A stretch of DNA of 64,000 bases from a virus. Every line of letters starts with the position of its first letter. Within the stretch, counting starts at the first letter, position 1. Location: positions 1 to 64,000 of the IMG/VR virus record IMGVR_UViG_3300047409_000574; one strand, given 5' to 3'. This document shows positions 15,679 through 45,368 of the stretch, piece by piece. A program made the translations under genes and the position numbers. The notes under the pieces are model-generated. The model did no database searches. It had not been told where the DNA came from and saw only the letters and a list, made by a program, of their open reading frames with translations.

Positions 15679-16622
15679 TGCCCTGGAACTTCTTCGACAG
15701 GTACGGGCAGAAGCGGGTCAACAGCGGCATGGCGATGACTTCGCAGGAAGTTGCGATTGTCGCTGGCACAGGAGCGGTCAATGTTGCGGCCACCGCCGCC
15801 CCCGGCACACTGGTGGTGACGTTCCCATCTTTTACTGCCGATGGAATCTCGGCATATGAAATACAACTCAATCCCACAATCATCAAGCGCGGCACTTCGT
15901 GGATATGGGTATCGCTGTATGACAACGGGACTCTTATCGCACGAATTGCCTACCTAGACGCCACTTACTCTCCTGGCCCGATGAAATATCGTGTCGTGCC
16001 CACCAGCGGGGCGCACGTTTTTACTGTCCGGGCCTGGGTGGATGCAGGCGCAGGAACATGGGTAGATGGTGGGGGTCTAGACCTAACGACTACCCATCGG
16101 ATCATTCGGGCCGACTGGGCGGTCTACAACCCCGGCGCGGTTCCGAAGATAACCACCTCGCCGTTGTCGGGTGGGCCACCGGCTAATCCGCAGGACAACG
16201 ACATTTGGATTGCAACGGGTGTCGATACCTTGGGTAGCCGCTGGCAGTTTCAGTACGACTTGGCCGAGGCTACCGCGTACAAGTGGAAGTTCATCGGCGG
16301 CCCCGTCGTCACGGTCTACCCCACAACCTTCACGTCGCCGTCAGGAGGTGCCTGGAACCCGCAGAACATCGTTGCGGTCGCACGCGCCGGAACCTACTCC
16401 GTGACCGCGAGTGCTCGTATGTCCGGTGCCGCGACTGGTCTCTACATCAGCTTCACCGGCAGCACTCTCGCCGGTGTGGGAGCCACACCAGACTTTGGCG
16501 GAATGATCGCGGATCAACTGACATACGCCGCAGGCGCACAGGTCATCCTGAGCCACTGGGGAGCGGTGGGTGCAACGTTCCAGTTCCAGGTCGTGACGGT
16601 GCAGCCGGTGAGGATCGCCTGA
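15678..16622 (+). CDS. Tail fibre / C1q-like adhesin, copy 2
   Basis: 314 residues from ATG 15678, overlapping the previous TGA. It begins MPWNFFDRYGQKRVNSG, close to copy 1's MGWQFYDRNGALKQA, and repeats the linker ITTSPLSGGPPANPQDNDIW ... YKWKFIGGP before a divergent C-terminal jelly-roll ending VTVQPVRIA. The conserved N-terminus and linker with divergent heads suggest duplication and receptor-binding diversification. Probable fibre protein. Confidence 0.7.
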   Translation: MPWNFFDRYGQKRVNSGMAMTSQEVAIVAGTGAVNVAATAAPGTLVVTFPSFTADGISAYEIQLNPTIIKRGTSWIWVSLYDNGTLIARIAYLDATYSPGPMKYRVVPTSGAHVFTVRAWVDAGAGTWVDGGGLDLTTTHRIIRADWAVYNPGAVPKITTSPLSGGPPANPQDNDIWIATGVDTLGSRWQFQYDLAEATAYKWKFIGGPVVTVYPTTFTSPSGGAWNPQNIVAVARAGTYSVTASARMSGAATGLYISFTGSTLAGVGATPDFGGMIADQLTYAAGAQVILSHWGAVGATFQFQVVTVQPVRIA

Positions 16623-17278
16623 TGAGTTCCTTCGCACAGGGCGGCGGCTACGCAGGCCCGGCCGGGCCTACCGGTGTGGCGGGGCCACCGGCGAGTTTCG
16701 GGTTGCGGTCTGCTCGTCCGGCGGCGAGCGCGGCGACCGGCCAGATGTTCTACGCGACCGACCAGGACGCCGTGTTCCTTTCGGACGGCACGACGTGGTT
16801 CCGTGTGGGTGTGCAGCCGGGGGACATTCTCTGGACGGCGGAGGCGTCGGCGCGCACCGGCTATCTGATCTGCACGGGGCAGGCGTGGCCGAGCACGACG
16901 GGCATCTACGCTGATCTGTTCGCGAAGTGGGGTGGTCTCTATCCGACGGTGCTGCCTGACTTGCAGGGCCGGTCGTTCGCCGCGAAGGGGACGCACGCCG
17001 ACATGGCGACGATCGGCAACAGTGACGGCCTGGCGGCGGCCAACCGGAGAACGAAGCACAAGCACACAGTGAACGAGGTGGCGCACGCGCACGCGACGCT
17101 GTACGGGAACGCGGGCGGCACCAGCACGCTTGGGAAGCCTGGCTCGACCGACCACGGCGAGTCGAACAGCTATAGCTCGCAGTCCGCTTCGACGGGGCTG
17201 ACGGTCGGCCCGCAGACTGGCGCGGAGCCGACTGATACGTCCGCGTACATCGTTCTTCAACCGCAGGTGAAACTTTGA
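16622..17278 (+). CDS. Tail collar fibre protein, copy 1
   Basis: 218 residues from ATG 16622 (TGATG). A short collagen-like start (AGPAGPTGVAGPP) is followed by a tail-collar domain: GDILWTAEASARTGYLICTGQ, TTGIYADLFAKWG, LPDLQGRSFAAKGTHAD, RRTKHKHTVNE and ending AYIVLQPQVKL. The H-x-H motif and the buried Gly-rich turn are typical of collar domains that bind metal and form trimers. It is a paralogue of the C-terminal half of the gene at 20292. Confidence 0.85.
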   Translation: MSSFAQGGGYAGPAGPTGVAGPPASFGLRSARPAASAATGQMFYATDQDAVFLSDGTTWFRVGVQPGDILWTAEASARTGYLICTGQAWPSTTGIYADLFAKWGGLYPTVLPDLQGRSFAAKGTHADMATIGNSDGLAAANRRTKHKHTVNEVAHAHATLYGNAGGTSTLGKPGSTDHGESNSYSSQSASTGLTVGPQTGAEPTDTSAYIVLQPQVKL

Positions 17279-20291: not shown

Positions 20292-21515
20292 ATGGAGAAC
20301 CGCACCTTTGCTTACAACGACAGATTTCCGGTCAGTTGGCCGGACACGTTGCAGGAGTTCATCTCGACGTTCGCCAGCAGCAACTTTCAGATCACGCTGG
20401 CGAGTCCGACGACGATCCAGGTTGTCGCGAGCGCGGGGAACGGGCTGGTCGGGATCGGGGTGGAGGGGAAGTGGCGGTACAACATCGCGACCGCTAACGC
20501 TGCGCATCCCGGCGGCGGAGCGGGCACCTACGACGTGTACGCGGTCGCGTCGGCGAACTCGTTCGCTGCGTCAGGGTTGCCGCCCGGCTCGAACCCGGAG
20601 GTGGACAACACCGACTACACGTTCGGCCTGGTGATTGTTGCCGGTGGGGCGGCGGCCCCGACCGGCACGTTCAACGGGCATGCGATTGCGCACACGCGCA
20701 AGGTGGCGACGCTCGCGTGGAGCGGGTCGGCGATCACGACGATCACCCACCTGGTCGGCCCTTACGCCGCGTCGGACAGCACCGTGATTCTGGACGGCTC
20801 GCTGACCCCGGCCAAGATCGCGGGGGTGGCGGTGGTGACCGGCGACTCGCGGCTGTCGGATGCGCGGGTGCCGGTGGCGCATGCTGCGTCGCATGCGCCG
20901 GGAGGCAGCGATCCTGTTGCCCAGAACAGTTACGGCACCTATGCGCTTCGTCCGGCGGCGGTGACAGCGTTGAATGGCTCGACCTACTACGCGATCGACC
21001 AGGACGCGATGTATCTCTGCGTGGCGGCTGCGTGGATCAGGCTTGGCGACAAGGCGGGCGACATTATCTGGACGGCGGAGGTGGCCGCACGGACGGGCTA
21101 CATCATTTGCGCAGGGCAAGCGTGGCCGGGCACGACGGGAATCTACGCTGACCTTTGGGCGAAGTGGGGGGCGCAGTATCCATCGGTGTTGCCTGACATG
21201 CCGGGCCGCACATTCGCGGCCAAGGGTACGCATGCTGATGTGGACACGATCGGCAAGACCGATGGCCTGGTGACCGGCAGCCGGAGGACGAAGCACAAGC
21301 ACACCGTTGTTCAGCCGACGATCGCGATGGGGCCGAACTCCGGCCGTGCGTTCGACCGCACCGGCCCTGGTACGGAAGATTCCGGCGGCGCGGCGATCGG
21401 CCAGCAAATCTTCCTGACCGCTACCGCTTCCGGTGGCACCGTCGGCCCGCAGACGGGTGCGGAGCCGATTGACACGGCTGCTTACATTGTTCTCCAGCCG
21501 CAGGTGAAGCTCTAG
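20292..21515 (+). CDS. Tail fibre with C-terminal collar domain, copy 2
   Basis: 407 residues. The N-terminal 200 residues form a beta-rich attachment region (FAYNDRFPVSWPDTLQEF). The C-terminal 170 residues repeat the collar domain of the gene at 16622: GDIIWTAEVAARTGYIICAGQ, TTGIYADLWAKWG, LPDMPGRTFAAKGTHAD, RRTKHKHTVVQP and AYIVLQPQVKL. Following the gp48-like gene, this is the best candidate for the main receptor-binding fibre, with the shorter copy as a second fibre or tip. Confidence 0.85.
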   Translation: MENRTFAYNDRFPVSWPDTLQEFISTFASSNFQITLASPTTIQVVASAGNGLVGIGVEGKWRYNIATANAAHPGGGAGTYDVYAVASANSFAASGLPPGSNPEVDNTDYTFGLVIVAGGAAAPTGTFNGHAIAHTRKVATLAWSGSAITTITHLVGPYAASDSTVILDGSLTPAKIAGVAVVTGDSRLSDARVPVAHAASHAPGGSDPVAQNSYGTYALRPAAVTALNGSTYYAIDQDAMYLCVAAAWIRLGDKAGDIIWTAEVAARTGYIICAGQAWPGTTGIYADLWAKWGAQYPSVLPDMPGRTFAAKGTHADVDTIGKTDGLVTGSRRTKHKHTVVQPTIAMGPNSGRAFDRTGPGTEDSGGAAIGQQIFLTATASGGTVGPQTGAEPIDTAAYIVLQPQVKL

Positions 21516-22779: not shown

Positions 22780-23793
22780 GTGGGCGCTACTGAGCAGGAC
22801 GAGGCCGGACAGGGCAGCCAGGAGGTCGCGGTTCGCGCGCCTGCGGCGACCCCGGCGAGGCCGCCGCTGCCGCTCTACAACGGCGTCATGTCGCCCGACC
22901 GGTGGACGATGCTGGGCCGGATCGCGACGACGACGGCCGACACGGATTTCGTGCCGAAGGGGTTGCGCGGCAAGCCGGGCGCGGTGATGGCGTGCCTGCT
23001 GTATGGCGACTCGCTGGGGCTGCACCCGTCGGTCTCGTTGACCGATGTGTATGTCGCGGACGGCAAGGTCGGCATCTCGGGTGCGTTGATGCTCGCGAAG
23101 ATCAGGGAGGCCGGGCACAAGGTCAAGTTCGAGACGTTGCGCGGCGAGGACGGCTCCTATGTCGGCTCGACGGCGAAGGGCTGGCGGCTGGTCGAGGGCG
23201 AGATCGTGGACGAGGACGAGTGGACGTACACGATGGAGGACGCCCGGCGGGCCGGTCTCTATCCGAACTCGTCGCCGAAGGCGGCGTGGATGAAGTCGCC
23301 GGAGGTGATGTGCCGTTGGCGGGCTGTCGCGCAGCTTTCGCGGTTCCTGTTCCCGGACGTGTTCCGGGGCGGCTCGATCTACACGCCGGATGAGGCGGAG
23401 GAGGTCGCCTACTCGGAGCGGATCAGCCGGAACGGGTCAGCGCCGGGCGCGGACGCGCCGCCTGCTGCCGAGTCGCAGGAGGGCGAGCCGGAGTGGGGCG
23501 ATGACCCGCTGCTGGCGGCGTGGCTGCTGGCGCTGTTCGCGCAGGCGAATGAGATCGAGGACGGGGTGTGGCTGCCGAAGAAGGTGAAGCTGGCGCTCAA
23601 GGGCCGGACGCAGCCGGAGCGGGAGGAGTTCGCGGTCGGTCTGGCGGCCTGGATCACCGAGCACGGCCAGGTGCCTGCGGAGCGGCCGGTGGAGACCGAG
23701 CAGGTCGCCGACGAGGATGTGGTGGTGCTCGACTTGCAGGGGGAGGCGGCGACGGAGGAAACGCTGATGGACGGGGCGACCGAACTCGACTAA
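22780..23793 (+). CDS. recT: RecT-like single-strand annealing protein
   Basis: 337 residues from GTG 22780, with AAGGAGG 9-15 bases upstream. Residues about 30-200 resemble RecT-family proteins of actinophages: PDRWTMLGRIATTTADTDFVP, VMACLLYGDSLGLHPSVSLTDVYVADGKVGISGALMLAKIREAGHKV (read in pieces) and CRWRAVAQLSRFLFPDVFRG. RecT anneals single strands during phage recombination. Its usual partner, a RecB-like 5'-3' exonuclease, is at 24478. The C-terminal third is acidic and low-complexity. An HNH gene sits between the pair. Confidence 0.8.
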   Translation: MGATEQDEAGQGSQEVAVRAPAATPARPPLPLYNGVMSPDRWTMLGRIATTTADTDFVPKGLRGKPGAVMACLLYGDSLGLHPSVSLTDVYVADGKVGISGALMLAKIREAGHKVKFETLRGEDGSYVGSTAKGWRLVEGEIVDEDEWTYTMEDARRAGLYPNSSPKAAWMKSPEVMCRWRAVAQLSRFLFPDVFRGGSIYTPDEAEEVAYSERISRNGSAPGADAPPAAESQEGEPEWGDDPLLAAWLLALFAQANEIEDGVWLPKKVKLALKGRTQPEREEFAVGLAAWITEHGQVPAERPVETEQVADEDVVVLDLQGEAATEETLMDGATELD

Positions 23794-23905: not shown

Positions 23906-24481
23906 GTGAGCGCAACGCCCGCTCCGCCGAAGGCAGAGTTTGACGACGCAGAGCTTGCTCGACGCTACCTTGCGGGAGAGCCTGCGGAAGCAATCGCTCG
24001 CAGTCTTGGCCGTAGCGGGAACGCTGTTCGTGCCCGGCTCAAAAAGCAAGGCGTGAGGGTGACTCCAGCGCGGCCAATGAAGCGGGAGCGTTACCGAGTC
24101 GAGGATCGCGGCTATGCCACGCCGTGCTGGACGTGGCTGCTCTCCAAGAACAACAAGGGCTACGGCCGCGTTGTTGTGCGTGGGCGCTTGCAACTCGCGC
24201 ACCGGCACTATCACGAGGAGAAGCACGGGCCGATCCCGGAGGGGTTGACGCTCGATCATCTCTGTCGCAACACTGATTGCGTGAACCCGGATCACACCGA
24301 AGCGGTAACGCATGCGGTCAACTGTCGGCGGGGCGCGGGGGTCAGGCTCTCGATGGAGACTGCGAATCAGATCAGGACGGCGAGGGCTGCCACGGGTGCG
24401 TCGTATCGTGCGTTGGCGGCGCAGTTCGACACTGACTACGGAACCGTGGGCCGCATCATCCGGGGGACGTTGTGGGCATGA
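23906..24481 (+). CDS. HNH homing endonuclease with N- and C-terminal HTH
   Basis: 191 residues from GTG 23906; ATG 23900 directly abuts AGGAG and is less likely. The N-terminus has a resolvase-like HTH (RRYLAGEPAEAIARSLGRSGNAV). Residues about 70-140 are the HNH core: PCWTWLLS, GYGRVVV, LAHRHYHEEKHG, LDHLCRNTDCVNPDHTEAVT. The C-terminus is another HTH (YRALAAQFDTDYGTVGRIIRG). It resembles the genes at 6035 and 44748. It splits the recT / exonuclease pair and carries its own promoter, as expected for a free-standing mobile endonuclease. Confidence 0.85.
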   Translation: MSATPAPPKAEFDDAELARRYLAGEPAEAIARSLGRSGNAVRARLKKQGVRVTPARPMKRERYRVEDRGYATPCWTWLLSKNNKGYGRVVVRGRLQLAHRHYHEEKHGPIPEGLTLDHLCRNTDCVNPDHTEAVTHAVNCRRGAGVRLSMETANQIRTARAATGASYRALAAQFDTDYGTVGRIIRGTLWA

Positions 24482-25794
24482 CGACGCCAGTCCCGTATCC
24501 CCGAGCGATGAAGAAGTACCCGGCGATCAGGCAAAGTTTGTTGTCTACCTTTGACGACTGCTCGCTACAGACCAAGTTCGAGATGGACATGCGACGTGGT
24601 TGGTCGTACTCGTACCAGGCGAGGGGAACTTTATTCCACCGCTTTGCAGCCGAAGCTCTCCGCACGATGGTCAAGCAGCAGGAGCCGCAGATTCCCGTGG
24701 AGGAGGCGCTGGAGATTCTACGTGAGGTGCTGGCCCAGCACAACGTGGATCGCGAGTGCCCGCATTGTGGCGGGACGCGGATCAGGCGGGGGATCACCAA
24801 GCGCGGGCTGCGGCTTTGTTTGACGTGTCGCAAGAGCTTCGAGACCGGCTGGATCACGGTGCCGTCCAACCACATCGCTGACCTCTACTGGGTGGTGGTG
24901 AAGTGGGCGCACGGGACGAGCTACGACGTGGCGAACGTGGTCGATGTGGAGCGTCGCCTGGAGGCTCGCATCTCCTACCCGAACCGTGTGCAGGGCGGCT
25001 GGGTGGAGCGCAAGCTGACCGGCAAGCTGGACGCGCTGCTGGTCGAGGGTCGCGATGACGAGCACGCGATCGTGCTCGACTGGAAGGACATGTGGAAGCT
25101 GCCGCCGGAGAAGGAGATCGACGACAAGGGCTACTTCCAGCAGCGCTTCTACGCCTACCTGATCTTCGAGAACTACCCGTCGGTCGAGCGGGTGACGTTG
25201 CGCGAGTTCTATGTGCGTTACGGCAAGCCGCGCGAGGCGACGATCACACGTGCGGTGATCGAGGAGGAGGTGCGGGCGGAGTTGTCGGCGCTGGTGGAGA
25301 AGTTCGACCGGGCGGTCGAGGAGCATCTCTGGAACGCGTCGCCGGGCGCGCATTGTAGTTATTGTCCGGCTCCGCATCGCTGCCCGATTCACCCGGAGGC
25401 GCGCGGGCATGGCCGGGCGACGACGCAGGCGGAGGCGGAGCAGGTGGCGGCCGAGTTCGTGGTAGCGTCGGCGATCGTGAAGCAAACACGGGAGGCTGCG
25501 GGGGCGTGGGCGCGTCAGCATGGGCCTATCCCGATCAAGGATGCGAAGGGCAAGCGGGTGCTCGGGTTCAAGGAGAGCACGCGGACGGAGCGGCCGACGG
25601 TGGAGGAGATAGATCAGCTTGGCCGGGAGCTTGGTCGTGCACCGACGCCGAAGGAGATCAAGGAGTTGTTCCACACCCGTACGTCAACGCTGTTGACGCA
25701 GTATGTTCCTTCTCGTGAGGAGCGCACGGAGCAGGATGATGCGTTGATCGAGTCGTTGCAGCGGAGCATCGACGAGGCGCGGTCGGTGGCGTGA
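24478..25794 (+). CDS. RecB-like PD-(D/E)XK exonuclease with zinc-ribbon insert
   Basis: 438 residues from ATG 24478 (ATGA overlap with the HNH stop). An N-terminal SLLSTFDDCSLQTKFE, then GTLFHRFAAEALR, LTGKLDALLVEG, AIVLDWKDM (the D-x-K core) and QQRFYAYLIFENYP are the ordered motifs of the RecB/Cas4/AddB nuclease family. A CPHCG ... CLTC zinc ribbon is inserted at about residues 98-120, and CSYCPAPHRCP near 300 resembles the iron-sulphur or zinc Cys cluster of this family. It probably resects double-stranded ends for RecT. Confidence 0.85.
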   Translation: MTTPVPYPRAMKKYPAIRQSLLSTFDDCSLQTKFEMDMRRGWSYSYQARGTLFHRFAAEALRTMVKQQEPQIPVEEALEILREVLAQHNVDRECPHCGGTRIRRGITKRGLRLCLTCRKSFETGWITVPSNHIADLYWVVVKWAHGTSYDVANVVDVERRLEARISYPNRVQGGWVERKLTGKLDALLVEGRDDEHAIVLDWKDMWKLPPEKEIDDKGYFQQRFYAYLIFENYPSVERVTLREFYVRYGKPREATITRAVIEEEVRAELSALVEKFDRAVEEHLWNASPGAHCSYCPAPHRCPIHPEARGHGRATTQAEAEQVAAEFVVASAIVKQTREAAGAWARQHGPIPIKDAKGKRVLGFKESTRTERPTVEEIDQLGRELGRAPTPKEIKELFHTRTSTLLTQYVPSREERTEQDDALIESLQRSIDEARSVA

Positions 25795-28097: not shown

Positions 28098-28440
28098 GTT
28101 GACTCCGGCACCGGGCGGCTACCCGATCAAGCTTGTGCGCGACAAGACGGCCAAGATCGTCAACCCATCCGGCGTGCCGGGGCAGCTTTGGTATGGGAAG
28201 GCACCGCTGGCCGACCGTGAGCGATTCTTGAAGTTGAAGCTGGCGGAGGAGGTCGGCGAGTACCTCGTGGACGGCGGCGCAGAAGAACTCGCAGACGTGT
28301 ACGCGGTCGTGCGGGCGCTCTTTGCGCTCCAGCACATCTACGAACTCGACGCGCTCGTGTCGGCTGACCCGCGTGGTGGGTTCCTGGACGGCGTGATGAT
28401 GTACGGGCGGCATGACGAGTTCGACGGCCAGGGTGCGTAG
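28090..28440 (+). CDS. MazG-like / phosphoribosyl-ATP pyrophosphohydrolase-type protein
   Basis: 116 residues from GTG 28090. KLVRDKTAKIV at residues 14-24 and FLKLKLAEEVGEYLVDGGAEELADVYAVVRAL near 46-77 (in pieces) give the all-alpha NTP-pyrophosphatase pattern, with the metal-binding E-E-x-x-E ... E-x-x-D set. Such enzymes hydrolyse (p)ppGpp or unusual NTPs; phage copies may remove alarmones or modified nucleotides. The 29-base overlap with the next gene is larger than elsewhere. Confidence 0.75.
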   Translation: MAELTPAPGGYPIKLVRDKTAKIVNPSGVPGQLWYGKAPLADRERFLKLKLAEEVGEYLVDGGAEELADVYAVVRALFALQHIYELDALVSADPRGGFLDGVMMYGRHDEFDGQGA

Positions 28441-29299
28441 GACACCGTTCAAGCGGGGCGGGAAGGGGTTGAAGCGCTCGGCGCTGGCACGGGGCGGGAA
28501 CCAAACGTCGATTCGCTCCTTACGCCCAGGAGAGGCCGACCCCGCTGGTGAGCCTCGTCGCTACGCCGATCCTCGCGGGTACGTGCGGCTGCGGTGGAAG
28601 GTCGCGCCGCACGAGTACGTGGAGCGGTATGAGCGCGACGCTGATGGCAGCCTGACGTGTACGAAGGAGCGAGAGCCGCCCCGGCGGATTGACAGAGCAG
28701 AGGTGGCCCAGCTTTATCTGGAGCAAGGACTGTCAACTCCGCAGATCAGCGCAATCACGGGATTCGACGCGGCGGCGATCTTTCGCGCCCTTCGCGCTTC
28801 CGGTGTGCCCATGCGCACTTCGGCTGATCGCTTCCCGGTCGATGTAGAGGCCATCCTGCATCTCTATGTGGACGAGAGACTCGGTTACGTTGAGGTGTCG
28901 CGACGTTTGGGTTATGCCTCGTCGGTGGTTCGGCGCGTCCTCCGAGATGAGGGCGTCACGCGTCGAGTGGGGAGGCCCGCCGGTCGTGTCAGACAGAGTT
29001 ACGAGGCTGGGGCTAGAAGGCTGCGTCCGGCCCTGCTAGAGCGCGCCGGTGGCGCGTGTGAAGTACGGGCGTCAGAGAAGTGTCGGGGGAGGGGGACTCA
29101 TTCGCACCATCGCAAGCTGCGTTCGCAGGGTGGCGCGAACGAACTCGTGAATCTGCTCGCTGTCTGCATCGTGTGCCACATGGTTATTCATCAGCACCCT
29201 ACGGCTGCTTACGCGAACGGCTGGCTGGTTCACTCTTACGACGACCCGGCGGCCACTCCGGTGCTGTACCGAGGCGAGTTGCGACTCCTCGCGGCGTGA
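28412..29299 (+). CDS. HNH endonuclease with tandem HTH
   Basis: 295 residues from ATG 28412. Residues about 90-190 hold two helix-turn-helix units (VAQLYLEQGLSTPQISAITG, ILHLYVDERLGYVEVSRRLGY). The C-terminal HNH has GGACEVR, CRGRGTHSHHRKLRSQGG, NLLAVCIVCHMVIHQHP: two Cys pairs and the HH core. A basic N-terminus overlaps the MazG-like gene. The HTH pairs probably set target specificity. Likely a homing endonuclease, although a host-type restriction role cannot be excluded. Confidence 0.8.
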   Translation: MTSSTARVRRTPFKRGGKGLKRSALARGGNQTSIRSLRPGEADPAGEPRRYADPRGYVRLRWKVAPHEYVERYERDADGSLTCTKEREPPRRIDRAEVAQLYLEQGLSTPQISAITGFDAAAIFRALRASGVPMRTSADRFPVDVEAILHLYVDERLGYVEVSRRLGYASSVVRRVLRDEGVTRRVGRPAGRVRQSYEAGARRLRPALLERAGGACEVRASEKCRGRGTHSHHRKLRSQGGANELVNLLAVCIVCHMVIHQHPTAAYANGWLVHSYDDPAATPVLYRGELRLLAA

Positions 29300-29884: not shown

Positions 29885-30502
29885 GTGAAACGCCTGTTGA
29901 CCGCATGGGCGCTCTCTCTCTGTTTCGCCGTGAGCGCGGCACCGACGGCTTCGGCCGTGAGCTTCTCCACTCGTTCTCTGTCCGACGCTCGTGTCGGCCA
30001 GTCCAAGCCCGAGCTTCTCGCCCAGATGGCGCACTCGGGCAAGGTCGTTTCCTTCTTCACGCGTGGCCCGCACCGCTGGATGGTGTTGCCTCGACACGCG
30101 TCGTGCTGGTCGCATGTGCCGGGCGTGAAGCTGCGCCACGTGTGCAACCGGGCGCGGCTGGCGCTGATCGCGCACCGCTGGTTGCTGGCGGTCGCGCACG
30201 CGCGTTACGTGAAACTGTACGAGCCGAAGCCGGACGACTGGGCGGAGTTCGCGTGCATCCATTCTCACGAGGGTGCGGCAACCTCGAACACCGGCAACGG
30301 CTACTACGGCGGGCTGCAAGAGGACATGGGGTTCCAACGCACCTACGGGCCGGACTTCATGGCACGCTGGGGCACCGCGGACAGGTGGCCGGTGTGGGCG
30401 CAGGTGGAGTCGGCGCGTCGTGCGCGTGATGGCTTCGCTGGGCATGGCGCGCGCGGGTACGGCCCGTGGCCGCAGACGGCGCGTGCGTGCGGGATGTTCT
30501 GA
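29885..30502 (+). CDS. Secreted Rpf-like transglycosylase
   Basis: 205 residues from GTG 29885, with CCGGAGG upstream. A signal peptide (MKRLLTAWALSLCFAVSAAP, cut near residue 24) precedes a linker, then WAEFACIHSHEGAATSNTGNGYYGGLQ, the Rpf/lysozyme-like domain with Glu129 as the probable catalytic acid and the Gly-Tyr-Gly substrate loop. Ends GPWPQTARACGMF, as in many Rpf domains. Rpf proteins are largely actinobacterial and cleave peptidoglycan glycan strands. Its location in a DNA-metabolism region, not the lysis cassette, is unusual. Confidence 0.78.
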   Translation: MKRLLTAWALSLCFAVSAAPTASAVSFSTRSLSDARVGQSKPELLAQMAHSGKVVSFFTRGPHRWMVLPRHASCWSHVPGVKLRHVCNRARLALIAHRWLLAVAHARYVKLYEPKPDDWAEFACIHSHEGAATSNTGNGYYGGLQEDMGFQRTYGPDFMARWGTADRWPVWAQVESARRARDGFAGHGARGYGPWPQTARACGMF

Positions 30503-30663
30503 TGGCTTAGGATGCGGTTCGAGCGGCCGGGCATGGTGGCCGGGGAGACCCCGGCACGGTCGGTGTCGTTCTGGCCCGTGAAACACTCGGCTGTCTCGGG
30601 CCGCCCTGTAACGCCAATCACGGGGCGGCCCACCTTCGTTGTGCAGCGGCGTGGCCGGAGTGG
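30503..30663 (+). other. Short non-coding gap with hairpin
   Basis: Between the Rpf-like stop and the next promoter I see no gene. It contains a GGTTCGAGC segment that superficially resembles a tRNA T-loop but no matching acceptor or D arm, several short GC palindromes, and the hairpin at 30598-30631. Confidence 0.5.
30598..30631 (+). terminator. GC-rich hairpin after Rpf-like gene
   Basis: GGGCCGCCC 30598-30606 pairs perfectly with GGGCGGCCC 30623-30631 around a 16-nt loop. No U-tract. It precedes the 30664 promoter, so it probably ends the upstream unit. Confidence 0.55.
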
Positions 30664-30697
30664 TAGAACCTCGTGACCCGACCGAGAGGAGATTCTG
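30664..30697 (+). promoter_or_regulatory. Promoter -10 and CCGACC leader
   Basis: TAGAAC at 30664-30669 as a possible -10, then GTGACCCGACCGAGAGGAG (CCGACC 30678-30683), and the TTG start at 30698. The leader matches those at 22762, 23889, 35522, 37374 and 41704. Confidence 0.45.
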
Positions 30698-31075
30698 TTG
30701 ACCACTACGGATACCGAGCGCCCGCTCAAGTCCGTTGCGGACATGGCCGCCGACGGCGGTATCGAGGAGGATGAGGACGGGCAGCTTGCGATTGCGGGCA
30801 CGCACGCGAAGCTGTCGCTGGAGGTGGGCGGCTCGAAGCCGACGGTGTCGGTTGCGAAGATCAAGGCGCTCAAGCTGCCGGTGCGCGGAACGGACGCGGA
30901 GAACCCCGGCCAGTTCAAAAAGGGAGACACGATCCGGGCGATGGTCGATCTGGTGTGTGTCGATCTCCAGTTCCCGGATGAGCGGCGGAAGGGGAAGGTG
31001 GAGCGCACGCAGCGTGTGCATATCTTCGAGCCGTTGGCTATCGAGATCATCGAGCCGGTGCCCGACGCGCCGTAA
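30698..31075 (+). CDS. Hypothetical DNA-metabolism-region protein
   Basis: 125 residues from TTG 30698, preceded by GAGAGGAG. Acidic N-terminus, then KLSLEVGGSKPTVSVAKIKALKLPV and DTIRAMVDLVCVDLQFPDERR, a strand-rich body ending in IEIIEPVPDAP. Strand order would suit a small OB-like or beta-barrel protein. Not recognised. A monocistronic unit between hairpins. Confidence 0.6.
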   Translation: MTTTDTERPLKSVADMAADGGIEEDEDGQLAIAGTHAKLSLEVGGSKPTVSVAKIKALKLPVRGTDAENPGQFKKGDTIRAMVDLVCVDLQFPDERRKGKVERTQRVHIFEPLAIEIIEPVPDAP

Positions 31076-31079
31076 CAAG

Positions 31080-31140
31080 GTGGGCGGGGTCGTCTCTCAG
31101 AGGTCGCAAGCGAGGTTGAAGCCCTCGCGGCCCCGCCCAC
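31080..31140 (+). terminator. Long hairpin between transcription units
   Basis: GTGGGCGGGG 31080-31089 pairs with CCCCGCCCAC 31131-31140 (10 bp), with an inner helix GCGAGG/CCTCGC at 31110-31115/31123-31128. No U-run follows. Likely a transcript boundary or stabilising structure. Confidence 0.55.
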
Positions 31141-31198
31141 TCAACTAACACGGATGCGCCGTAGGCTGGGCACAACTCAACGATAGGGAGGTGCGGGG

Positions 31199-31555
31199 AT
31201 GGCGTTGAACTCTCTCGCGAATGTCTCGGGCGCGGGGCTGCCTGGTGGCGCGGGCGGTGCGTCGGAGGACTTCGATGTGCTGGCGGGGGCGGTCGCGGAA
31301 CTCCAGCGGATGAGGGTCACCGTGGTGGCCGGTGCTGGCGCGAACACGAACATCGCGGTGGCGGGCATCGTGATGGCGGACACGTTGCTGTCGGTGCTGC
31401 GTCATATCGACTCGGGGGCGGCGACGACGGCGTCGGTGGTCGATCACACGGCGCAGGCTGCGATCACGTCGGACGGGAACATTCAGGTGACGGTCGCGAC
31501 GAACATCAACGCCGGTGACCGGCTGGTCGTGACCTGGTTCGACAAGGCGGCCTAG
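31199..31555 (+). CDS. Small Ala/Gly/Val-rich protein, possible virion component
   Basis: 118 residues from ATG 31199, with AGGGAGG upstream. Ala/Gly/Val-rich (AGLPGGAGGASEDF, VVAGAGANTNIAVAGIVM, NIQVTVATNINAGDRLVVTWF), strand-rich in its second half. It has its own promoter-like TAGGCT at 31161 and a hairpin upstream. The composition resembles small capsid-decoration or fibre proteins, but it sits far from structural genes. Function unknown. Confidence 0.6.
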   Translation: MALNSLANVSGAGLPGGAGGASEDFDVLAGAVAELQRMRVTVVAGAGANTNIAVAGIVMADTLLSVLRHIDSGAATTASVVDHTAQAAITSDGNIQVTVATNINAGDRLVVTWFDKAA

Positions 31556-31576
31556 CAAGCAAAGTCCTCAACAGTG

Positions 31577-32008
31577 ATGCAACCACCAGTCGCCCCTCTT
31601 TCATCGTTTTCCCTGGGGTGGCTGGTGGGCATCCTGGAGGGCGAGGGATGCTTCTACGCCAAGCCACGAAGGACTCGCTCTCCTTATCCCATGATTGATG
31701 TGACGATGACCGATCGCGACACGATCGAGCATGTGTACGCGCTTACAGGCGTCGGCGTGCTCGGCAGCGTGATTCCACAGCAGTCGCACCACAAGGCAGC
31801 TTGGAAGTGGAGGGTGAGTGGTGAGCGCGCTTTGACGCTGATGCTGCTCGTGCGACCTTTCCTAAGCGAACGGCGCATGATGAAGGTGAACGAGATTCTT
31901 CAACAGTGTGGGGAAAAGCCTGTGGAGGGTTTCTGTTCAGCGCTGTCTGCGGCGGAGTCGCTCTATGGCGGCCCGTTGCAAGCTGTGGAAAGGCGGCCCG
32001 GCGGTTGA
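31577..32008 (+). CDS. LAGLIDADG homing endonuclease carrying a terminase-derived tail
   Basis: 143 residues from ATG 31577 (GTG at 31574 also possible). Residues 13-25 LGWLVGILEGEGCF are the LAGLIDADG helix; only one such motif is present, so it would act as a homodimer. Conserved downstream segments are TMTDRDTIEHV and KWRVSGERALTLMLLVRPFLSERRM. The last 20 residues contain ALSAAESLYGGPL, almost identical to ALSAAESFYGGPL in the large terminase at 43990-44040. The DNA matches 37 of 41 bases without gaps (31940-31980 versus 44000-44040). This suggests it moved from, or captured, a terminase insertion site. Confidence 0.8.
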   Translation: MQPPVAPLSSFSLGWLVGILEGEGCFYAKPRRTRSPYPMIDVTMTDRDTIEHVYALTGVGVLGSVIPQQSHHKAAWKWRVSGERALTLMLLVRPFLSERRMMKVNEILQQCGEKPVEGFCSALSAAESLYGGPLQAVERRPGG

Positions 32009-32022
32009 CCCCGTCGGGCCGC
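31993..32022 (+). terminator. Hairpin at the end of the LAGLIDADG gene
   Basis: GCGGCCCG 31993-32000 pairs with CGGGCCGC 32015-32022. It overlaps both the end of the reading frame and the -35 / spacer of the next promoter, so formation in RNA would not block that promoter. Confidence 0.5.
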
Positions 32023-32033
32023 GGTCTTAGGAT
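32005..32033 (+). promoter_or_regulatory. Sigma70-type promoter for HNH gene at 32105
   Basis: TTGACC 32005-32010 and TAGGAT 32028-32033 with a 17-base spacer. Start of transcription near 32040 would place the palindrome at 32051-32078 at the very 5' end of the mRNA. Confidence 0.6.
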
Positions 32034-32044
32034 GCTTGCCCCAT

Positions 32045-32078
32045 AAAAAAGACGCCGCTCCCGGTCAGGAACGGCGTC
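32045..32078 (-). terminator. Intrinsic terminator facing left
   Basis: Read on the minus strand, GACGCCG ... CGGCGTC (32072-32078 with 32051-32057) is followed by TTTTTT (32050-32045), a canonical Rho-independent terminator. No minus-strand gene lies immediately to its right, so it would stop antisense transcription, while on the plus strand the same palindrome forms a 5' leader hairpin. Confidence 0.6.
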
Positions 32079-32104
32079 GAGTTCTAGCATTCGAGGAGGT
32101 CAGT

Positions 32105-32737
32105 ATGACCGATCTAGCGGACGTTGCGCAAGTCGTTCTCGACGATTTGCAAGGCGAGCGCTTCTACGTTGCGCTCGTCGAGCTTCGGTTCTTCTACTGG
32201 GAGACCGACTGCTCCGTCGCTTCGATCGCGGCGGGATACACGTTGCCCGCGCATGAGGTTCCCGGTGCTGCCGGGCCGCTCGTGCTCGCGTCTACATGTG
32301 GGTGGTGTGGGGACAACGAGGTCGTTCATTCGCGGACAGAGCGGGCGGAGCGTGAGCGATGGTGGCGGCGACGCCATGAGGTTCGCGGCCGTCGAGAAGT
32401 TGAGGTCGGATGGCTTCCCGGAGATCGCTGCTCTAACTGCAACGATGGGTTCGCTGCATGGGCGGAGATCGACCGGGCGAGAGGAGCACGACTCGACACG
32501 AGCGAGCGGCAACTGCTGCGTTCGATGCCGTACTCCGACTATCTGCTCACCGAGCATTGGAAGAAGGTCAGGGCGCGGGCACTCAAGTATGCGGGCTACC
32601 GCTGCCAGTTGTGTAACGCGCGAGCACGGCTCGATGTTCACCATCGGACGTATGAGCATCGAGGCTGCGAGCGTGACCAGGATGTGATCGCACTCTGCCG
32701 CCCATGTCACGCTCTCCATCACGGAAAGCTCGCATGA
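32105..32737 (+). CDS. HNH endonuclease
   Basis: 210 residues from ATG 32105, with GAGGAGGT upstream. The N-terminal 150 residues include two Cys pairs (CGWCG, CSNCN). The C-terminal domain is the HNH: YAGYRCQLCNARARLDVHHRTYEHRG (in pieces) and DVIALCRPCHALHH. Phage HNH proteins of this kind may be homing endonucleases or serve packaging. It is followed by the replication genes through an overlapping ATG and has its own promoter. Confidence 0.8.
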   Translation: MTDLADVAQVVLDDLQGERFYVALVELRFFYWETDCSVASIAAGYTLPAHEVPGAAGPLVLASTCGWCGDNEVVHSRTERAERERWWRRRHEVRGRREVEVGWLPGDRCSNCNDGFAAWAEIDRARGARLDTSERQLLRSMPYSDYLLTEHWKKVRARALKYAGYRCQLCNARARLDVHHRTYEHRGCERDQDVIALCRPCHALHHGKLA

Positions 32738-33501
32738 GCGCGGTCGAGAAGAAGCCGTGGGTCAGCCACCGCTTCCCGCCGTCGTGGCACTTCACGCGCC
32801 TGCCGAACGTCATGCTTCTCGACGCGTCGCTCTCGCCGGACGCGAAGGTTCTCTGGATGCTGCTCTGTCATCTCGCCGTCGAGCAGCGAACGGATCAGCC
32901 TGTTGTCGGCGTCGAGGAGGCCAGGTCGGCTATCGGCCTGGGTGAACGAACGTGGGCAAAGGCGCGAGACGAGTTGGTCGAGCGCGGCTTGCTGGAGGTG
33001 AAAGGCAGGCGCGGATTCGGCCTGCCGAACGAGTATGTCGTGCTGCCGCCGCATGACCCTCAAAACGCAGTCATGGGTGCCGACAAAACGCAGGAACTAG
33101 GTGCCGACGAATCGCAGCACCCTTCCTTATTCGAGATAGAACCCTCCTCCACCTCCACCCTGCGCGCGGGGCGCGCGCCCACCCAGGTGAACGGGAAGAA
33201 GGTGACCGTCAAGGAGGAGTTCTTCGCTATCGCGGTGCTCGACGTGTTCAACGAGATCACCGGCAAGAAGTTCGCGGCGAAGGAGACGCTCGGGAAGATC
33301 ATCCTGCGTCATCGCGAGCATCCAGAACTCGACGTGGCCGACCACCGCCGGATCATCGAGGAGCAGGTCGCCCATCCGTGGTGGAAGGGGGACGTGTCTC
33401 CGGCGGTAATCTACGGGAACGGGCCGTTGTTCGACCGGGCGCTGAACGGTGTCCGGGCTGCACCGGCCGATCCGCTCAAGGTGAACTACACCCGTGTCTG
33501 A
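32734..33501 (+). CDS. Replication initiator / DnaD-like protein with N-terminal winged helix
   Basis: 255 residues from ATG 32734 (ATGA). Residues 15-110 form an HTH (LDASLSPDAKVLWMLLCHLAV, EEARSAIGLGERTWAKARDELVERGLLEV). Residues about 165-245 (VLDVFNEITGKKF, HPELDVADHRRIIEEQVAHPWW, SPAVIYGNGPLFDRAL) match the DnaD/phage replisome-organiser C-terminal type. It would bind the origin and recruit the helicase loader encoded next, a common initiator - loader order. Middle linker is Ser/Thr/Ala-rich. Confidence 0.75.
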   Translation: MSAVEKKPWVSHRFPPSWHFTRLPNVMLLDASLSPDAKVLWMLLCHLAVEQRTDQPVVGVEEARSAIGLGERTWAKARDELVERGLLEVKGRRGFGLPNEYVVLPPHDPQNAVMGADKTQELGADESQHPSLFEIEPSSTSTLRAGRAPTQVNGKKVTVKEEFFAIAVLDVFNEITGKKFAAKETLGKIILRHREHPELDVADHRRIIEEQVAHPWWKGDVSPAVIYGNGPLFDRALNGVRAAPADPLKVNYTRV

Positions 33502-40339: not shown

Positions 40340-40590
40340 CAAGGGTCGGGTGTTAGCTGGGGCGAGGCAGCACGGGCCGATCCCAGTTCTCCCCTAGTGA
40401 ACGGGGGAGGTAGGCCATGCGAGCCGCCCGAGGGTGTGAGGGTAGCTCCCTCTCGTGGCCGTCCCGGCGTGTCCGTGTCCTCGTCGCCGGGGCGGCGGCC
40501 TGTAAAGCCACCGGAGTTTGCTACCCCGTGCTACACTGAGCGCATGCGGCGGGCGTCTGTGCTCACCGCTTCCGACCTGGAGGTAGAGGA
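40340..40590 (+). other. Structured non-coding leader upstream of ku
   Basis: No credible gene. Contains hairpins CTCCCC/GGGGAG (around 40389-40408) and GAGGG/CCCTC (around 40432-40454), then the 19-base GTTTGCTAC element at 40507 and TACACT at 40532. The ku ribosome site GGAGGTAGAG is at its end. A GTG-started frame through it is rejected as a shadow of ku. Confidence 0.5.
40507..40537 (+). promoter_or_regulatory. GTTTGCTAC element plus extended -10 upstream of ku
   Basis: GCCACCGGAGTTTGCTACC 40507-40525, then TGCTACACT (TACACT 40532-40537), an extended -10. The element ends six bases before the -10, so a bound protein could block or activate polymerase. The 14 bases TGCTACACTGAGCG recur at 45381-45394. 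Confidence 0.6.
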
Positions 40591-41577
40591 ATGGCGAGCA
40601 CGATCAGGACGATCAAGCTGGTCTGCGGCGGACTCGCGTTCGATGTGGCGCTGCGTGGGGCGAGCGAGAAGCGGGATGTGACGCTCGACCGGGCGGCGGC
40701 GTCGTTCGTCGGTGGCTCGGAGGACGATCCCGCTGCGCTGGTCGAGGTTGCCAAGCGCATCTGCCGGATCGACGTGGTCGATCCCGGCCCGGACGCGGAG
40801 GGTCTGACGATCGAGCGGCTCTCTCGGAAGAAGGGCAAGATCGAGCAGCAGCAGTTCTACGGTGAGCCGCTGCGCGGGGTCTGGGACGGCGACGAGTTCC
40901 ACAAGATCGAGCCGGAGGAGATCGAACTGATCGACGACATGACCCGGCTCGACACACTCACCTTTCAGGAGTTCGTGCTGGCCGCCGACGTGCCGTGGGA
41001 GCGCGCGGTCGCGAGCTACTTCCTGCTCCCGGCGAACGGCACCGTGTCGGAGCAGACCAAGATGGTCACGCTGCGCGAGGCGATGGAGCGCCGGGGGGTG
41101 GTGGCGGTCGCGAAGCTGATGCCGAAGTCGCGGCAGAAGCTCGCGGTGATCTACCCGAAGCACGGCGGGCTGATGGTCACCTGTCTCGCCTACGCCGACA
41201 CGTACGCGCAGGTGCTCGACGGTGCCGCGTCGCTCGACGGGGTGGTCGTGCCCGACAAGGCGGTTGCGCTGGCCGAGCAGTTGATCGGCCTGATGCTCAA
41301 GCCCGCGTCGGTGCTGGACGAGTACCGCGACGATCTGATCGACCTCAAGGCTGACCTGGTGGAGCGCGCGAAGCTCGGCGAGCCGCTGGTCGATCCCGAG
41401 GTGGACGTGGACGTGGACGGCGACGAGGTTGCGACGGTTCCGGCTCCGACAGCGCTGGAGGACTTGCTCCAGGCGACGCTCGATGCGCTCAAGCCGAAGG
41501 TGGCACCGAAGAAGAAATCGACGGCGAAGAAGCCGTCTGTCAAGTCTCCCTCCAGGAGAACGGCCGCCACGAAGTAA
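40591..41577 (+). CDS. ku: Phage Ku protein (DNA end-binding)
   Basis: 328 residues from ATG 40591, preceded by GGAGGTAGAGG. The Ku core order is visible: GGLAFDVALRGASEKRDV at the N-terminus, IERLSRKKGKIEQQQFYGEPLRGV, FHKIEPEEIELIDDMTR, LTFQEFVLAADVPWERAVAS, SYFLLPANGTVSEQTKM, LREAMERRGVVAVAKLM, KLAVIYPKHGGLMVTCLAY. The C-terminus is a Lys/Ala/Pro tail of the sort that contacts DNA or LigD. Actinophages Omega and Corndog encode Ku used with host LigD to circularise short cohesive ends. No LigD is seen here. Confidence 0.88.
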   Translation: MASTIRTIKLVCGGLAFDVALRGASEKRDVTLDRAAASFVGGSEDDPAALVEVAKRICRIDVVDPGPDAEGLTIERLSRKKGKIEQQQFYGEPLRGVWDGDEFHKIEPEEIELIDDMTRLDTLTFQEFVLAADVPWERAVASYFLLPANGTVSEQTKMVTLREAMERRGVVAVAKLMPKSRQKLAVIYPKHGGLMVTCLAYADTYAQVLDGAASLDGVVVPDKAVALAEQLIGLMLKPASVLDEYRDDLIDLKADLVERAKLGEPLVDPEVDVDVDGDEVATVPAPTALEDLLQATLDALKPKVAPKKKSTAKKPSVKSPSRRTAATK

Positions 41578-42332: not shown

Positions 42333-42950
42333 GTGACGACGAAGGGTGAGCCGAAGCCGCCGAAGAAGCCGACCGGCGCGCGCGGTGCGGGCAAGAGCAC
42401 GCGTCCTGCGCTGCCGTCCCGGAAGAAGCCCAAGTCCACCCTGCGTCGTCCCACGCTGGCCGAGGCCATCGCGCGCAACAGGAAGGTGGTCGAGTTACGG
42501 CTGATGGAGCACAAGACCTGGCGGCAGATCGCCGAGGAAGTCGGCGTGAACGAGATGACAGCCCGGACGGGCTACCGCACCTATGTGGAGGAGATCGCCC
42601 CGCTGATCGACTCGGAGGACGCGTTCGAGAAGGCCCGCGAGTTCCTGCTCAAGCTGGAGGGCATCCAGTCGAAGTTCGCGGCGGTGGCGGCCGGGTCGAA
42701 CCACGAGATGGTGAAGATCGCGGCGCTCCGCTCTCTGGTCGATGCGATGTGGAAAGAGGTGGAGCTTCGCCAGCATCTCGGGCTGCTGCCGTCTGACCTG
42801 GCCGGGCTGGCGGACGAGACCGAGGCGCGCTGGGTGGCCCAGCAGGTAGTCGCCCTGCTCAGGAAGTACGGCGCACCGCAGAAGGCAATCACCGAGCTTC
42901 ACGAGATCATGCGGGTGCCCGAGCCGCCGCGCGCCCTGTCGGCGGTCTAG
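42333..42950 (+). CDS. terS: Terminase small subunit
   Basis: 205 residues from GTG 42333. A basic, Pro/Lys-rich first 45 residues (KKPTGARGAGKST, SRKKPKSTLRR) lead into an HTH (VELRLMEHKTWRQIAEEVGVNEMTARTGYRTYV) and a helical oligomerisation region. This organisation and the position directly before the large subunit define TerS, which binds the packaging site and feeds DNA to TerL. The stop overlaps the next GTG. Confidence 0.85.
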   Translation: MTTKGEPKPPKKPTGARGAGKSTRPALPSRKKPKSTLRRPTLAEAIARNRKVVELRLMEHKTWRQIAEEVGVNEMTARTGYRTYVEEIAPLIDSEDAFEKAREFLLKLEGIQSKFAAVAAGSNHEMVKIAALRSLVDAMWKEVELRQHLGLLPSDLAGLADETEARWVAQQVVALLRKYGAPQKAITELHEIMRVPEPPRALSAV

Positions 42951-44764
42951 TGCCGGTCAAGCGGGTGGCGGTGCTCGACCGGCCGCTCGCGTTCCAGACG
43001 CGGCGCACCGGCCCGCGTGCGGCGTTGCGGAGCGAGACCGCGCCGGTGGAAGCACCGCAGGAGGAGAAGCCGCTCTCGTTCCTGGAGTGGTCGCGGCGTA
43101 TCCCGACGGCGAAGGGCAACCTACTCGACTTCGACCGGTTCCCGTTCCAGCCGGAGATGTATCAGGTGTTCGGCGACCAGGAGGTAAAGGACGCTGATCT
43201 GATGAAAAGCGTGCAGGTCGGCGCGTCGGAGATGCTCGCACGTCTGACGCTTTACTTCCCCGACACGCTTGGTTTGACGGCGTTGTACGTGTTCCCAGCG
43301 CTCAAACAGATGTACGACTGGAGCGACACTCGGATCAACCCGCTGCGCGAGCAGAGCAGCTATCTCCAGTCGCGCACGAAGCAGTTACCTGATTGGGCGT
43401 GGAACAAAGGCTTGAAACGCGTGGGCCAAGGATTTTGTGTGTATCGAGGCTCGGAGTCGAAGAATGATCTGATCTCGGTGGACGCCGACCTGGTCGCGAT
43501 GGACGAGTACGACTCGTTGCATCCGCCGAACATCCCGGAGGCGGAGCGCCGGATCAGCGGGTCGGCGTGGGGGCTGATCCGCCGGGTCGGCATCCCATCC
43601 GATCCCGAATATGGAATCGCGAAGCGCTACGCCGCATCGGATCGTCGCTCGTGGATGGTGAAGTGCGGATGCAAGGAGGGCTGGCAGCCGCTCGTGTTCT
43701 CCCTGAACGTGGAGTGGGAGGAGGACGGTGAGGCGATCGAGAACCCGCGGGTGGTCTGCAAGCGCTGCCGCAAGCCGCTCGACGTGCTCAAGGGGAAGTG
43801 GGTGAAGGAGCACCCGGATCGCTCCCGGCCGGGCTTCCATGTGCACCGGCTGATGGTGCCGGGCGAGCGCGGGTTGCGCGCGGTGATCGAGGCTTCCAAG
43901 CTGCGCGAGCCGCACTTGGTCAAGAGCTTCTACAACAATGATCTAGGGATGCCGCACGCCGACAAGACCGGCGGGCTGGATCGTGCGGCCATCGCGGCGG
44001 CGCTGTCGGCGGCGGAGTCGTTCTACGGCGGCCCGTTGGAGCAGGTCGGCGGCTACCGGGGGCCGAACTATGTGACGGCCGGTGTGGATGTGGCGAGCGC
44101 GCGCGCGTTGAGCGTGCGGATCAGCGAGCACCTCGACCCGTTCGAGGTGGTCGGGCATCGCAAGCGCGCGCTCTTTATCGGCGAGGTGGACAGCTTCAAC
44201 GATCTGCCGATGCTGATGGATCACTACGGCGTGCACATCATGGTGATCGACCATCTGCCGGAGATGCGGCTGGCGCTCGGGATGGCGGAGCGCTATCCCG
44301 GCCGCGTGTATGTGTGTCACTACTCGTCCAATCAGTTCGAGCCGCTCGTGCTTGACACTGAGCAGCGCAAGGTGAGTGTGCAGCGCACGCCGGTGATGGA
44401 TGCGGTGATCTCGGTGATGCGGGGGCTGCGTAACTTCCTCCCGGCGGACTTGCCGGTGAAGTACGTGGAGCATATGATCGCGCCGCGCCGGGTGATCGAA
44501 CGCGACGAGTACGACCGCACGACGGTGCGCTACGAGTCGAAGGGGCCGGATGATGCGTTCCACGCAGAGGTCTACGATCTGGTCGCCACCGAAGTTCTCA
44601 AGATCAGGATGGAAGTAGAAGCTGCGACTGCTGGCCCCGAGATCACGTCGTTGGACGACCAACTCGAATGGGAGCGGAGCAACGTAAACAGTCTGGACGA
44701 GATGGGGTATCGCGCTGGCCCCGACATGTCGTATCGTCCAGGCCCGGATGGCGACGGTTACTGA
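42950..44764 (+). CDS. terL: Terminase large subunit (GpA-like)
   Basis: 604 residues from GTG 42950. The N-terminal ATPase has the lambda GpA-type deviant Walker A LMKSVQVGASE near residue 83 and Walker B DLVAMDEYD (D185, E186). A zinc ribbon follows (KCGCKEG, VCKRCRK). The nuclease starts with Asp380 in AGVDVASARA and continues to VIDHLPEMRLALG and GPDDAFHAEVYDL. The segment ALSAAESFYGGPL just before the nuclease domain is copied in the LAGLIDADG gene at 31577. The protein cuts and pumps DNA into the head through the portal. Confidence 0.92.
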   Translation: MPVKRVAVLDRPLAFQTRRTGPRAALRSETAPVEAPQEEKPLSFLEWSRRIPTAKGNLLDFDRFPFQPEMYQVFGDQEVKDADLMKSVQVGASEMLARLTLYFPDTLGLTALYVFPALKQMYDWSDTRINPLREQSSYLQSRTKQLPDWAWNKGLKRVGQGFCVYRGSESKNDLISVDADLVAMDEYDSLHPPNIPEAERRISGSAWGLIRRVGIPSDPEYGIAKRYAASDRRSWMVKCGCKEGWQPLVFSLNVEWEEDGEAIENPRVVCKRCRKPLDVLKGKWVKEHPDRSRPGFHVHRLMVPGERGLRAVIEASKLREPHLVKSFYNNDLGMPHADKTGGLDRAAIAAALSAAESFYGGPLEQVGGYRGPNYVTAGVDVASARALSVRISEHLDPFEVVGHRKRALFIGEVDSFNDLPMLMDHYGVHIMVIDHLPEMRLALGMAERYPGRVYVCHYSSNQFEPLVLDTEQRKVSVQRTPVMDAVISVMRGLRNFLPADLPVKYVEHMIAPRRVIERDEYDRTTVRYESKGPDDAFHAEVYDLVATEVLKIRMEVEAATAGPEITSLDDQLEWERSNVNSLDEMGYRAGPDMSYRPGPDGDGY

Positions 44765-45368
44765 GCGGCTCTGGTCGAAGATCGACGTGCGCGGGCCGGA
44801 TGAGTGCTGGCCGTGGACGAGGGGCAAGACGAGCGCGGGTTACGGCCAACTGCGCGTGGCGGGGAAGTTGTTGTATGCGCACCGCCTGGTGAGCGAGGAT
44901 CGAGGGGGGCCGTTGCCGTCGAACGTGGTCGTGCGCCATTCGTGCGACAACCCTCCGTGCTGCAATCCGAAGCATCTTCTGCGTGGGACGCAACGCGACA
45001 ACGTGATGGACATGTTCGAGCGCGGACGCGCGAACCACACGACGCTACGCGGGGAGAAGAGCGGGACGGCGAAGCTCACCGCCGACCAGGTCATGGCCGC
45101 TCGACACGCGTATGCGTCCGGGGCGGCGACGTTTGAGGGACTGGCGGCGGAGTACGGCGTGGTTATGGCGGCGATGTGGAACGCAGTCAACGGCATGACC
45201 TGGTCGCACCTGCCGCTGGTGAAGCGGGCGACGAAGAAGCGAGGTCGGGGGCTGTGCGAGTGCGGGTGTGGCGCTCGTGCTCCGATCGCGAAGATGACGA
45301 ACACGAAGAAGGGTCACGTGCGCGGGAGGCCAGTCAGGTTCATACGCGGCCACCATGCTCGACACTAG
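44748..45368 (+). CDS. HNH endonuclease next to terminase
   Basis: 206 residues from ATG 44748, overlapping terL by 17 bases. HNH core: CWPWTRG, GYGQLRV, LLYAHRLVSEDRGG, VVRHSCDNPPCCNPKHLLRGT, NVMDM; then an HTH (LTADQVMAARHAYASG, FEGLAAEYGV) and a C-terminal CECGCGAR knuckle. It belongs to the same group as 6035 and 23906. HNH proteins beside terminases can be needed for cos cleavage (HK97 gp74 type), so either packaging or homing is possible; the family resemblance to the scattered copies favours homing. Confidence 0.82.
   Translation: MATVTERLWSKIDVRGPDECWPWTRGKTSAGYGQLRVAGKLLYAHRLVSEDRGGPLPSNVVVRHSCDNPPCCNPKHLLRGTQRDNVMDMFERGRANHTTLRGEKSGTAKLTADQVMAARHAYASGAATFEGLAAEYGVVMAAMWNAVNGMTWSHLPLVKRATKKRGRGLCECGCGARAPIAKMTNTKKGHVRGRPVRFIRGHHARH

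What the first reader, a model, noticed from the sequence alone, without database searches (positions are those of the whole stretch)
31940..31980. LAGLIDADG endonuclease carries a piece of the terminase gene
41 bases at its 3' end match terL 44000-44040 with only four differences, and in the same reading frame (ALSAAES-x-YGGPL). The endonuclease therefore probably came from an insertion, intein or intron in a related terL just before the nuclease domain and carried the exon flank with it. The short duplication could also now serve recombination between the sites.
Basis: partly seen in the sequence, partly recalled or inferred. Interest (0 to 1): 0.8.

Follow-up and report, generated by a model that had tools for sequence, protein, structure and literature searches.

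The report
Phage homing endonuclease with terminase scrap
A small DNA-cutting gene in an uncharacterised phage ends in a 39-letter, in-frame copy of part of the phage's own DNA-packaging gene, most likely a scar of sloppy DNA-break repair rather than the remains of an intron or intein.

Summary
It is far beyond chance: 0 of 600 random 39-mers of this 126-kb phage record reach even 34/39. The ORF is a 143-144-aa single-motif LAGLIDADG endonuclease (phrog_5046). The fold is complete at residues 11-111. The terL-like piece lies in a low-confidence tail outside it and is absent from 80 relatives. In terL the segment is native: the end of a helix plus the linker before the nuclease domain, with homologous linkers in distant terLs. 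The copy therefore went from terL to the endonuclease gene.

The proposed intron/intein origin is not supported. Only 11 codons separate endonuclease fold and terL piece, no upstream terL flank exists, no intron RNA is detected, and no terL with an insertion at this codon was found. Known terL introns of this terL family lie elsewhere. I favour a free-standing homing endonuclease whose 3' end was rewritten by illegitimate, break-induced recombination with terL; the phage encodes RecT and an exonuclease. Nothing similar was seen in 31 other contigs carrying the family. Modest interest: an unusual variant of a known gene kind.

The parts
31574..32008 (+). Free-standing single-motif LAGLIDADG homing endonuclease gene (GTG 31574 or ATG 31577; TGA 32006-32008)
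   Evidence: phrog_5046 E 6e-21; AF2 fold plus Foldseek to I-CreI/I-CvuI/I-MsoI
31604..31906 (+). Complete LAGLIDADG fold, residues 11-111; conserved G19, E22, G23, E24 (90% or more), G25, D49, R100, R101
   Evidence: pLDDT about 95-98; conserved columns
31940..31978 (+). terL-derived segment (codons 123-135, ALSAAESLYGGPL) in the low-confidence C-terminal tail
   Evidence: 36/39 identity to 44000-44038; tail pLDDT 49-69
42950..44764 (+). terL, GpA/SPO1-type terminase large subunit
   Evidence: GpA_ATPase 4.3e-22; phrog_675 1.2e-71
44000..44038 (+). Source segment in terL: end of helix 345-359 and start of the linker (364-370 low confidence) before nuclease strand 374-380
   Evidence: AF2 model; homologous linkers in L180 and L181
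32005..32033 (+). Sigma-70-like promoter TTGACC-N17-TAGGAT overlapping the endonuclease stop codon
   Evidence: 1 found, 0.1 expected
22780..23793 (+). RecT-like single-strand annealing protein, candidate recombination partner
   Evidence: phrog_561 1.3e-28
24472..25794 (+). Exonuclease, candidate recombination partner
   Evidence: phrog_69 1.6e-16

Best explanation
A free-standing LAGLIDADG homing endonuclease gene (probably a homodimer like I-CreI) sits between a small ORF with only a sub-threshold match to a structural cement protein family and a promoter-like site. Its last 22 codons start with a 13-codon segment copied from the terL of this phage or a close kin. Inferred mechanism: a double-strand break at or near the 3' end of the endonuclease gene, or in terL, was repaired by illegitimate short-homology joining or annealing, plausibly aided by the phage RecT and exonuclease. 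This fused a terL scrap in frame to the endonuclease and supplied a new C-terminus; any C-terminal module present before, as many relatives have, was lost. Shown: the copy, its frame, its direction, its position outside the fold, and the absence of intron or intein parts. Inferred: the break-repair step, its trigger, and loss of an older C-terminus. The tail is probably a neutral scar, tolerated because the fold is complete without it.
For: Copy is non-random. The segment is native to terL: relatives have homologous linkers, L180 LSSDLPGGRLPEG-VKW and L181 LWKDLPGGRAPAQ-GPW, before the conserved G-[VI]-D. It is foreign to the endonuclease family: tails of 80 relatives vary widely (very short, HTH-like, Cys-rich) and none resembles it. 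The segment's GC3 (0.85) equals terL's (0.85), not that of the endonuclease body (0.67) (only 13 codons, so weak). Fold ends at residue 111, tail low confidence. RecT and exonuclease present. Precedent: T6 SegB, where microhomology between the 3' end of a free-standing HEG and a tRNA gene is the proposed recombination site and leaves a C-terminally truncated HEG (PMC13096335).
Against: No relative with the pre-capture state was found, so the event is inferred from one genome. No clear junction microhomology is visible. In-frame joining is a 1-in-3 coincidence under this model. No similar captures in 31 other contigs carrying the family, so it is not a habit of the family.
Confidence: 0.55

Rival explanations
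1. The endonuclease gene once lay inside a related terL as a bare insertion (split gene), intron or intein and moved out carrying a piece of the downstream exon.
For: Direction terL to endonuclease; same frame; introns occur in this terL family (PMC11878797); HEGs cluster near terminase genes (PMC10448857).
Against: Only 11 codons between fold and terL piece: no room for an intron core or intein C-terminal block. No 5' exon flank. No intron RNA. The target would be a poorly conserved linker, unlike the terL breaks at residues 217/219 and 380-386. No terL of this type beside any of 80 related endonucleases; of 50 contigs with a related endonuclease only one holds a detectable terL of this type at all.
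Confidence: 0.2
2. The terL-like segment is a kept functional part: either a homology arm or target mimic that links the endonuclease to terL for homing, or a C-terminal helix that took over DNA binding.
For: 39 bp is of the size of a homing site or of a RecT-usable homology (general knowledge). The sequence is still 92% identical. The C-terminal loop of I-CreI is needed for DNA binding (title of PDB 2o7m). Free-standing HEGs can cut hundreds or thousands of bases from their own locus (PMC2988022).
Against: Tail is low confidence and outside the fold. No marked palindrome in the segment for a homodimer site: best 6 of 9 arm pairs, seen at 1.6% of genome positions before correcting for many offsets. 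The phage's own terL is intact.
Confidence: 0.13
3. A larger past terL duplication or phage-phage recombination junction lay here; the endonuclease ORF merely reads into its last remnant.
For: The copy is short and its edges abrupt; it lies just upstream of a promoter-like site.
Against: No other terL remnant in 31401-32150.
Confidence: 0.08
4. Chance or convergent similarity.
For: Segment is GC-rich and rich in alanine and glycine codons.
Against: 0 of 600 random 39-mers reach 34/39 in the same GC-rich record; E 1.75e-5.
Confidence: 0.02

Closest known systems
phrog_5046-type LAGLIDADG endonucleases of actinobacterial phages (Microbacterium, Arthrobacter, Curtobacterium, Mycobacterium)
   Same: Same conserved residues; mostly free-standing; 35-42% identity in the matched part
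   Different: No member seen carries a piece of another phage gene at its end
SegB free-standing homing endonuclease of T6/T4 (PMC13096335)
   Same: Short homology between the HEG 3' end and another phage gene; recombination removes the HEG C-terminus
   Different: GIY-YIG enzyme; the shared homology is with an adjacent tRNA gene; activity shown by experiment
Fungal mitochondrial introns with host-gene duplications (Tremella, PMC7315562)
   Same: Mobile element carries a fragment of a host gene
   Different: Introns with long N-terminal duplications; eukaryotic organelle
ICP1 Gp88 chimeric nuclease (PMC8263062)
   Same: HEG-derived nuclease fused to sequence taken from another gene
   Different: A whole DNA-binding domain giving targeting; here a 13-codon scrap
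Group I introns in terL of Bastillevirinae (PMC11878797)
   Same: Same terL family (phrog_675) hosts mobile elements
   Different: Sites seen here in related phages differ; the terL intron nucleases in the passages read there are HNH/VSR type, not LAGLIDADG

Membership tests
LAGLIDADG homing endonuclease (single motif) | LAGLIDADG-type motif with conserved acidic residue | tested here: met
   WLVGILEGEG; G19, E22, G23, G25 invariant, E24 in 90% or more of 43-49 sequences
LAGLIDADG homing endonuclease (single motif) | alpha-beta-beta-alpha-beta-beta-alpha fold | tested here: met
   AF2 model, Foldseek E 8e-6 to an I-CreI variant
LAGLIDADG homing endonuclease (single motif) | Pfam curated cut-off (a detection threshold rather than a defining feature) | tested here: inconclusive
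   LAGLIDADG_3 14.4 bits versus 22.5 cut-off; membership rests on phrog_5046 and the fold
LAGLIDADG homing endonuclease (single motif) | Site-specific cleavage and homing | not testable with these tools
   needs biochemistry
Group I intron ORF | Intron core around the ORF | tested here: not met
   No Rfam match in the window at gathering threshold; in 30500-33500 at E up to 1 only a weak sRNA match
Intein | Splicing blocks and C-terminal HN-C/S/T junction | tested here: not met
   Only 11 residues (112-122) between fold and terL piece; no HN before the junction (sequence)
HEG inserted in terL | Upstream and downstream terL flanks | tested here: not met
   Only a piece on the downstream side is present

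The most novel reading that the evidence does not exclude
The endonuclease carries at its 3' end a built-in homology arm or mimic of its own target in terL, so that a broken terL of a competing phage is repaired onto the endonuclease gene: a free-standing HEG that homes, or drives 12-kb segmental rearrangement, through a captured copy of its target.
Probability: 0.06. Interest if true: 0.7.

Novelty: new variant of a known kind. Interest (0 to 1): 0.33.

Why it matters
It is a concrete fossil of how a phage homing endonuclease can acquire a new C-terminus: from a short scrap of an essential phage gene. If the scrap were functional it would directly tie a free-standing endonuclease to a target gene 12 kb away, which can be tested in a simple cleavage assay.

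Tried and rejected
Close relatives of the endonuclease or terL in IMG/VR and GTDB by single-protein search: none. Profile searches gave only distant terLs, 21-30% identity. DNA and peptide searches with the shared segment in phage records: no relevant match. Rfam on 39 related endonuclease loci: tRNAs and one group I intron, in L116. Search for the same kind of tail copy in 31 contigs: only weak matches; 159 of 640 random segments also gave a hit at the same threshold. Palindrome test for a homodimer target inside the segment: unremarkable. An apparent lead that the segment replaced a Cys-rich C-terminal module (EGFC, then terL) is only suggestive. Metagenome contigs could not be searched.

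Full report
Observation. The 41 bases at 31940-31980 match 44000-44040 with four differences. The alignable core is 31940-31978 / 44000-44038, 36 of 39 bases, E 1.75e-5 in a self-comparison of the 126,255-base record in which the window lies. Both copies are read in the same frame. The flanks on either side match about as chance would give. Of 600 random 39-mers of this record none finds a second copy at 34/39 or better.

The endonuclease. The ORF 31574-32008 (ATG at 31577 is more likely than GTG at 31574) matches phrog_5046 (E 6e-21) and weakly Pfam LAGLIDADG_3 (below its cut-off). Its best phage matches are annotated LAGLIDADG or HNH endonucleases, mostly of actinobacterial phages. An AlphaFold2 model from 43 sequences gives a confident LAGLIDADG fold at residues 11-111 and a low-confidence tail, 112-144, with a helix at 120-130. 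Foldseek puts it with the homodimeric I-CreI, I-CvuI and I-MsoI. The catalytic-type acidic residue E24 is conserved in 90% or more. So the nuclease is probably intact and its fold does not need the terL piece.

The terL piece. TerL (42950-44764) is of the GpA/SPO1 type. The segment is residues 351-363: the end of helix 345-359 and the start of the linker before the first nuclease strand, 374-380. The distant terLs L180 and L181 have homologous linkers, so the segment belongs to terL. In the endonuclease family it is foreign: 80 relatives have tails of all sorts, none like it. A degenerate pattern for the peptide finds nothing in 2.9 million viral contigs (TCN serine codons only) and only 12 stretches in 85,000 genomes, none with a terL or endonuclease relative. 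The copying therefore ran from terL to the endonuclease gene.

Intron, intein or insertion? Between fold and terL piece lie 11 codons. That leaves no room for an intron core or an intein C-terminal block. There is no upstream terL flank and no intron RNA hit. In the Bacillus phages examined the terL breaks fall at query residues 217/219 and about 380-386, away from 351-363; group I introns of that terL family are described in PMC11878797. Of 39 related endonuclease loci scanned, one lies near an Rfam group I intron, and the LittleE relative lies inside a capsid gene annotated as intron-bearing. Of 50 contigs with a related endonuclease one holds a detectable terL of this type. So an intron or intein relic is not supported; a bare insertion in an unseen terL remains possible.

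Most likely mechanism. A free-standing homing endonuclease gene took a scrap of terL at its 3' end by illegitimate, break-induced recombination. The phage carries a RecT-like protein and an exonuclease, which suit short-homology annealing (general knowledge). The closest documented parallel is T6 SegB, where microhomology between the 3' end of segB and a tRNA gene is the proposed recombination site and leaves a C-terminally truncated SegB (PMC13096335). I rate this 0.55. The break-repair step itself is inferred.

Is it a habit? In 31 contigs with related endonucleases no comparable copy of another gene was found at the ends; the weak hits seen are of the kind that random segments also give. 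The case is so far unique, and no other genome shows the before or after state. The verdict therefore rests on one locus. Records very close to this phage may have been withheld from the searches, as the tools state.

Uncertainty about function. The tail could act in DNA binding, or the copy could be a homology arm or a target mimic. The segment shows no strong palindrome, which speaks mildly against its being a homodimer's site. These readings need biochemistry.

Noticed in passing
L177:7088-8053 (record 87088-88053): One 321-aa ORF joins an HNH_3 domain, a LAGLIDADG domain (A2 profile hit at 87543-87864) and an HTH-like C-terminus: an unusual two-nuclease fusion in the same phage.
   Followed up: partly
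window 28412-29299, 32105-32737, 44748-45368: Further HNH-type endonuclease-like genes; one overlaps the end of terL by 17 bases, one follows the LAGLIDADG gene.
   Followed up: partly
record 1-135 and 126124-126255: Imperfect direct repeat (97.8%) at the two ends of the record, suggesting a nearly complete genome.
   Followed up: no
record 82131-82212, 86300-86398, 106572-106676, 117605-117705, 118442-118519, 121814-121916; window 40502-40600: Family of dispersed repeats of about 80-100 bases, roughly 68-83% alike, mostly in the right half of the record; function not examined.
   Followed up: no
window 32051-32078: 12-pair hairpin followed by a T run on the minus strand, just downstream of the promoter-like site.
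   Followed up: no
L116 (3504-3762, minus) and G014: Three LAGLIDADG hits of this family in one contig, beside a group I intron on the opposite strand.
   Followed up: no
L148 / G037: A related endonuclease ORF holds a second LAGLIDADG motif in its tail, a possible in-family duplication to a two-motif enzyme.
   Followed up: no
window 16714-17274 and 20948-21511; 15111-15302 and 16112-16303: About 565 bases repeated at 70% identity and 192 bases at 72%: gene duplications between neighbouring genes.
   Followed up: no
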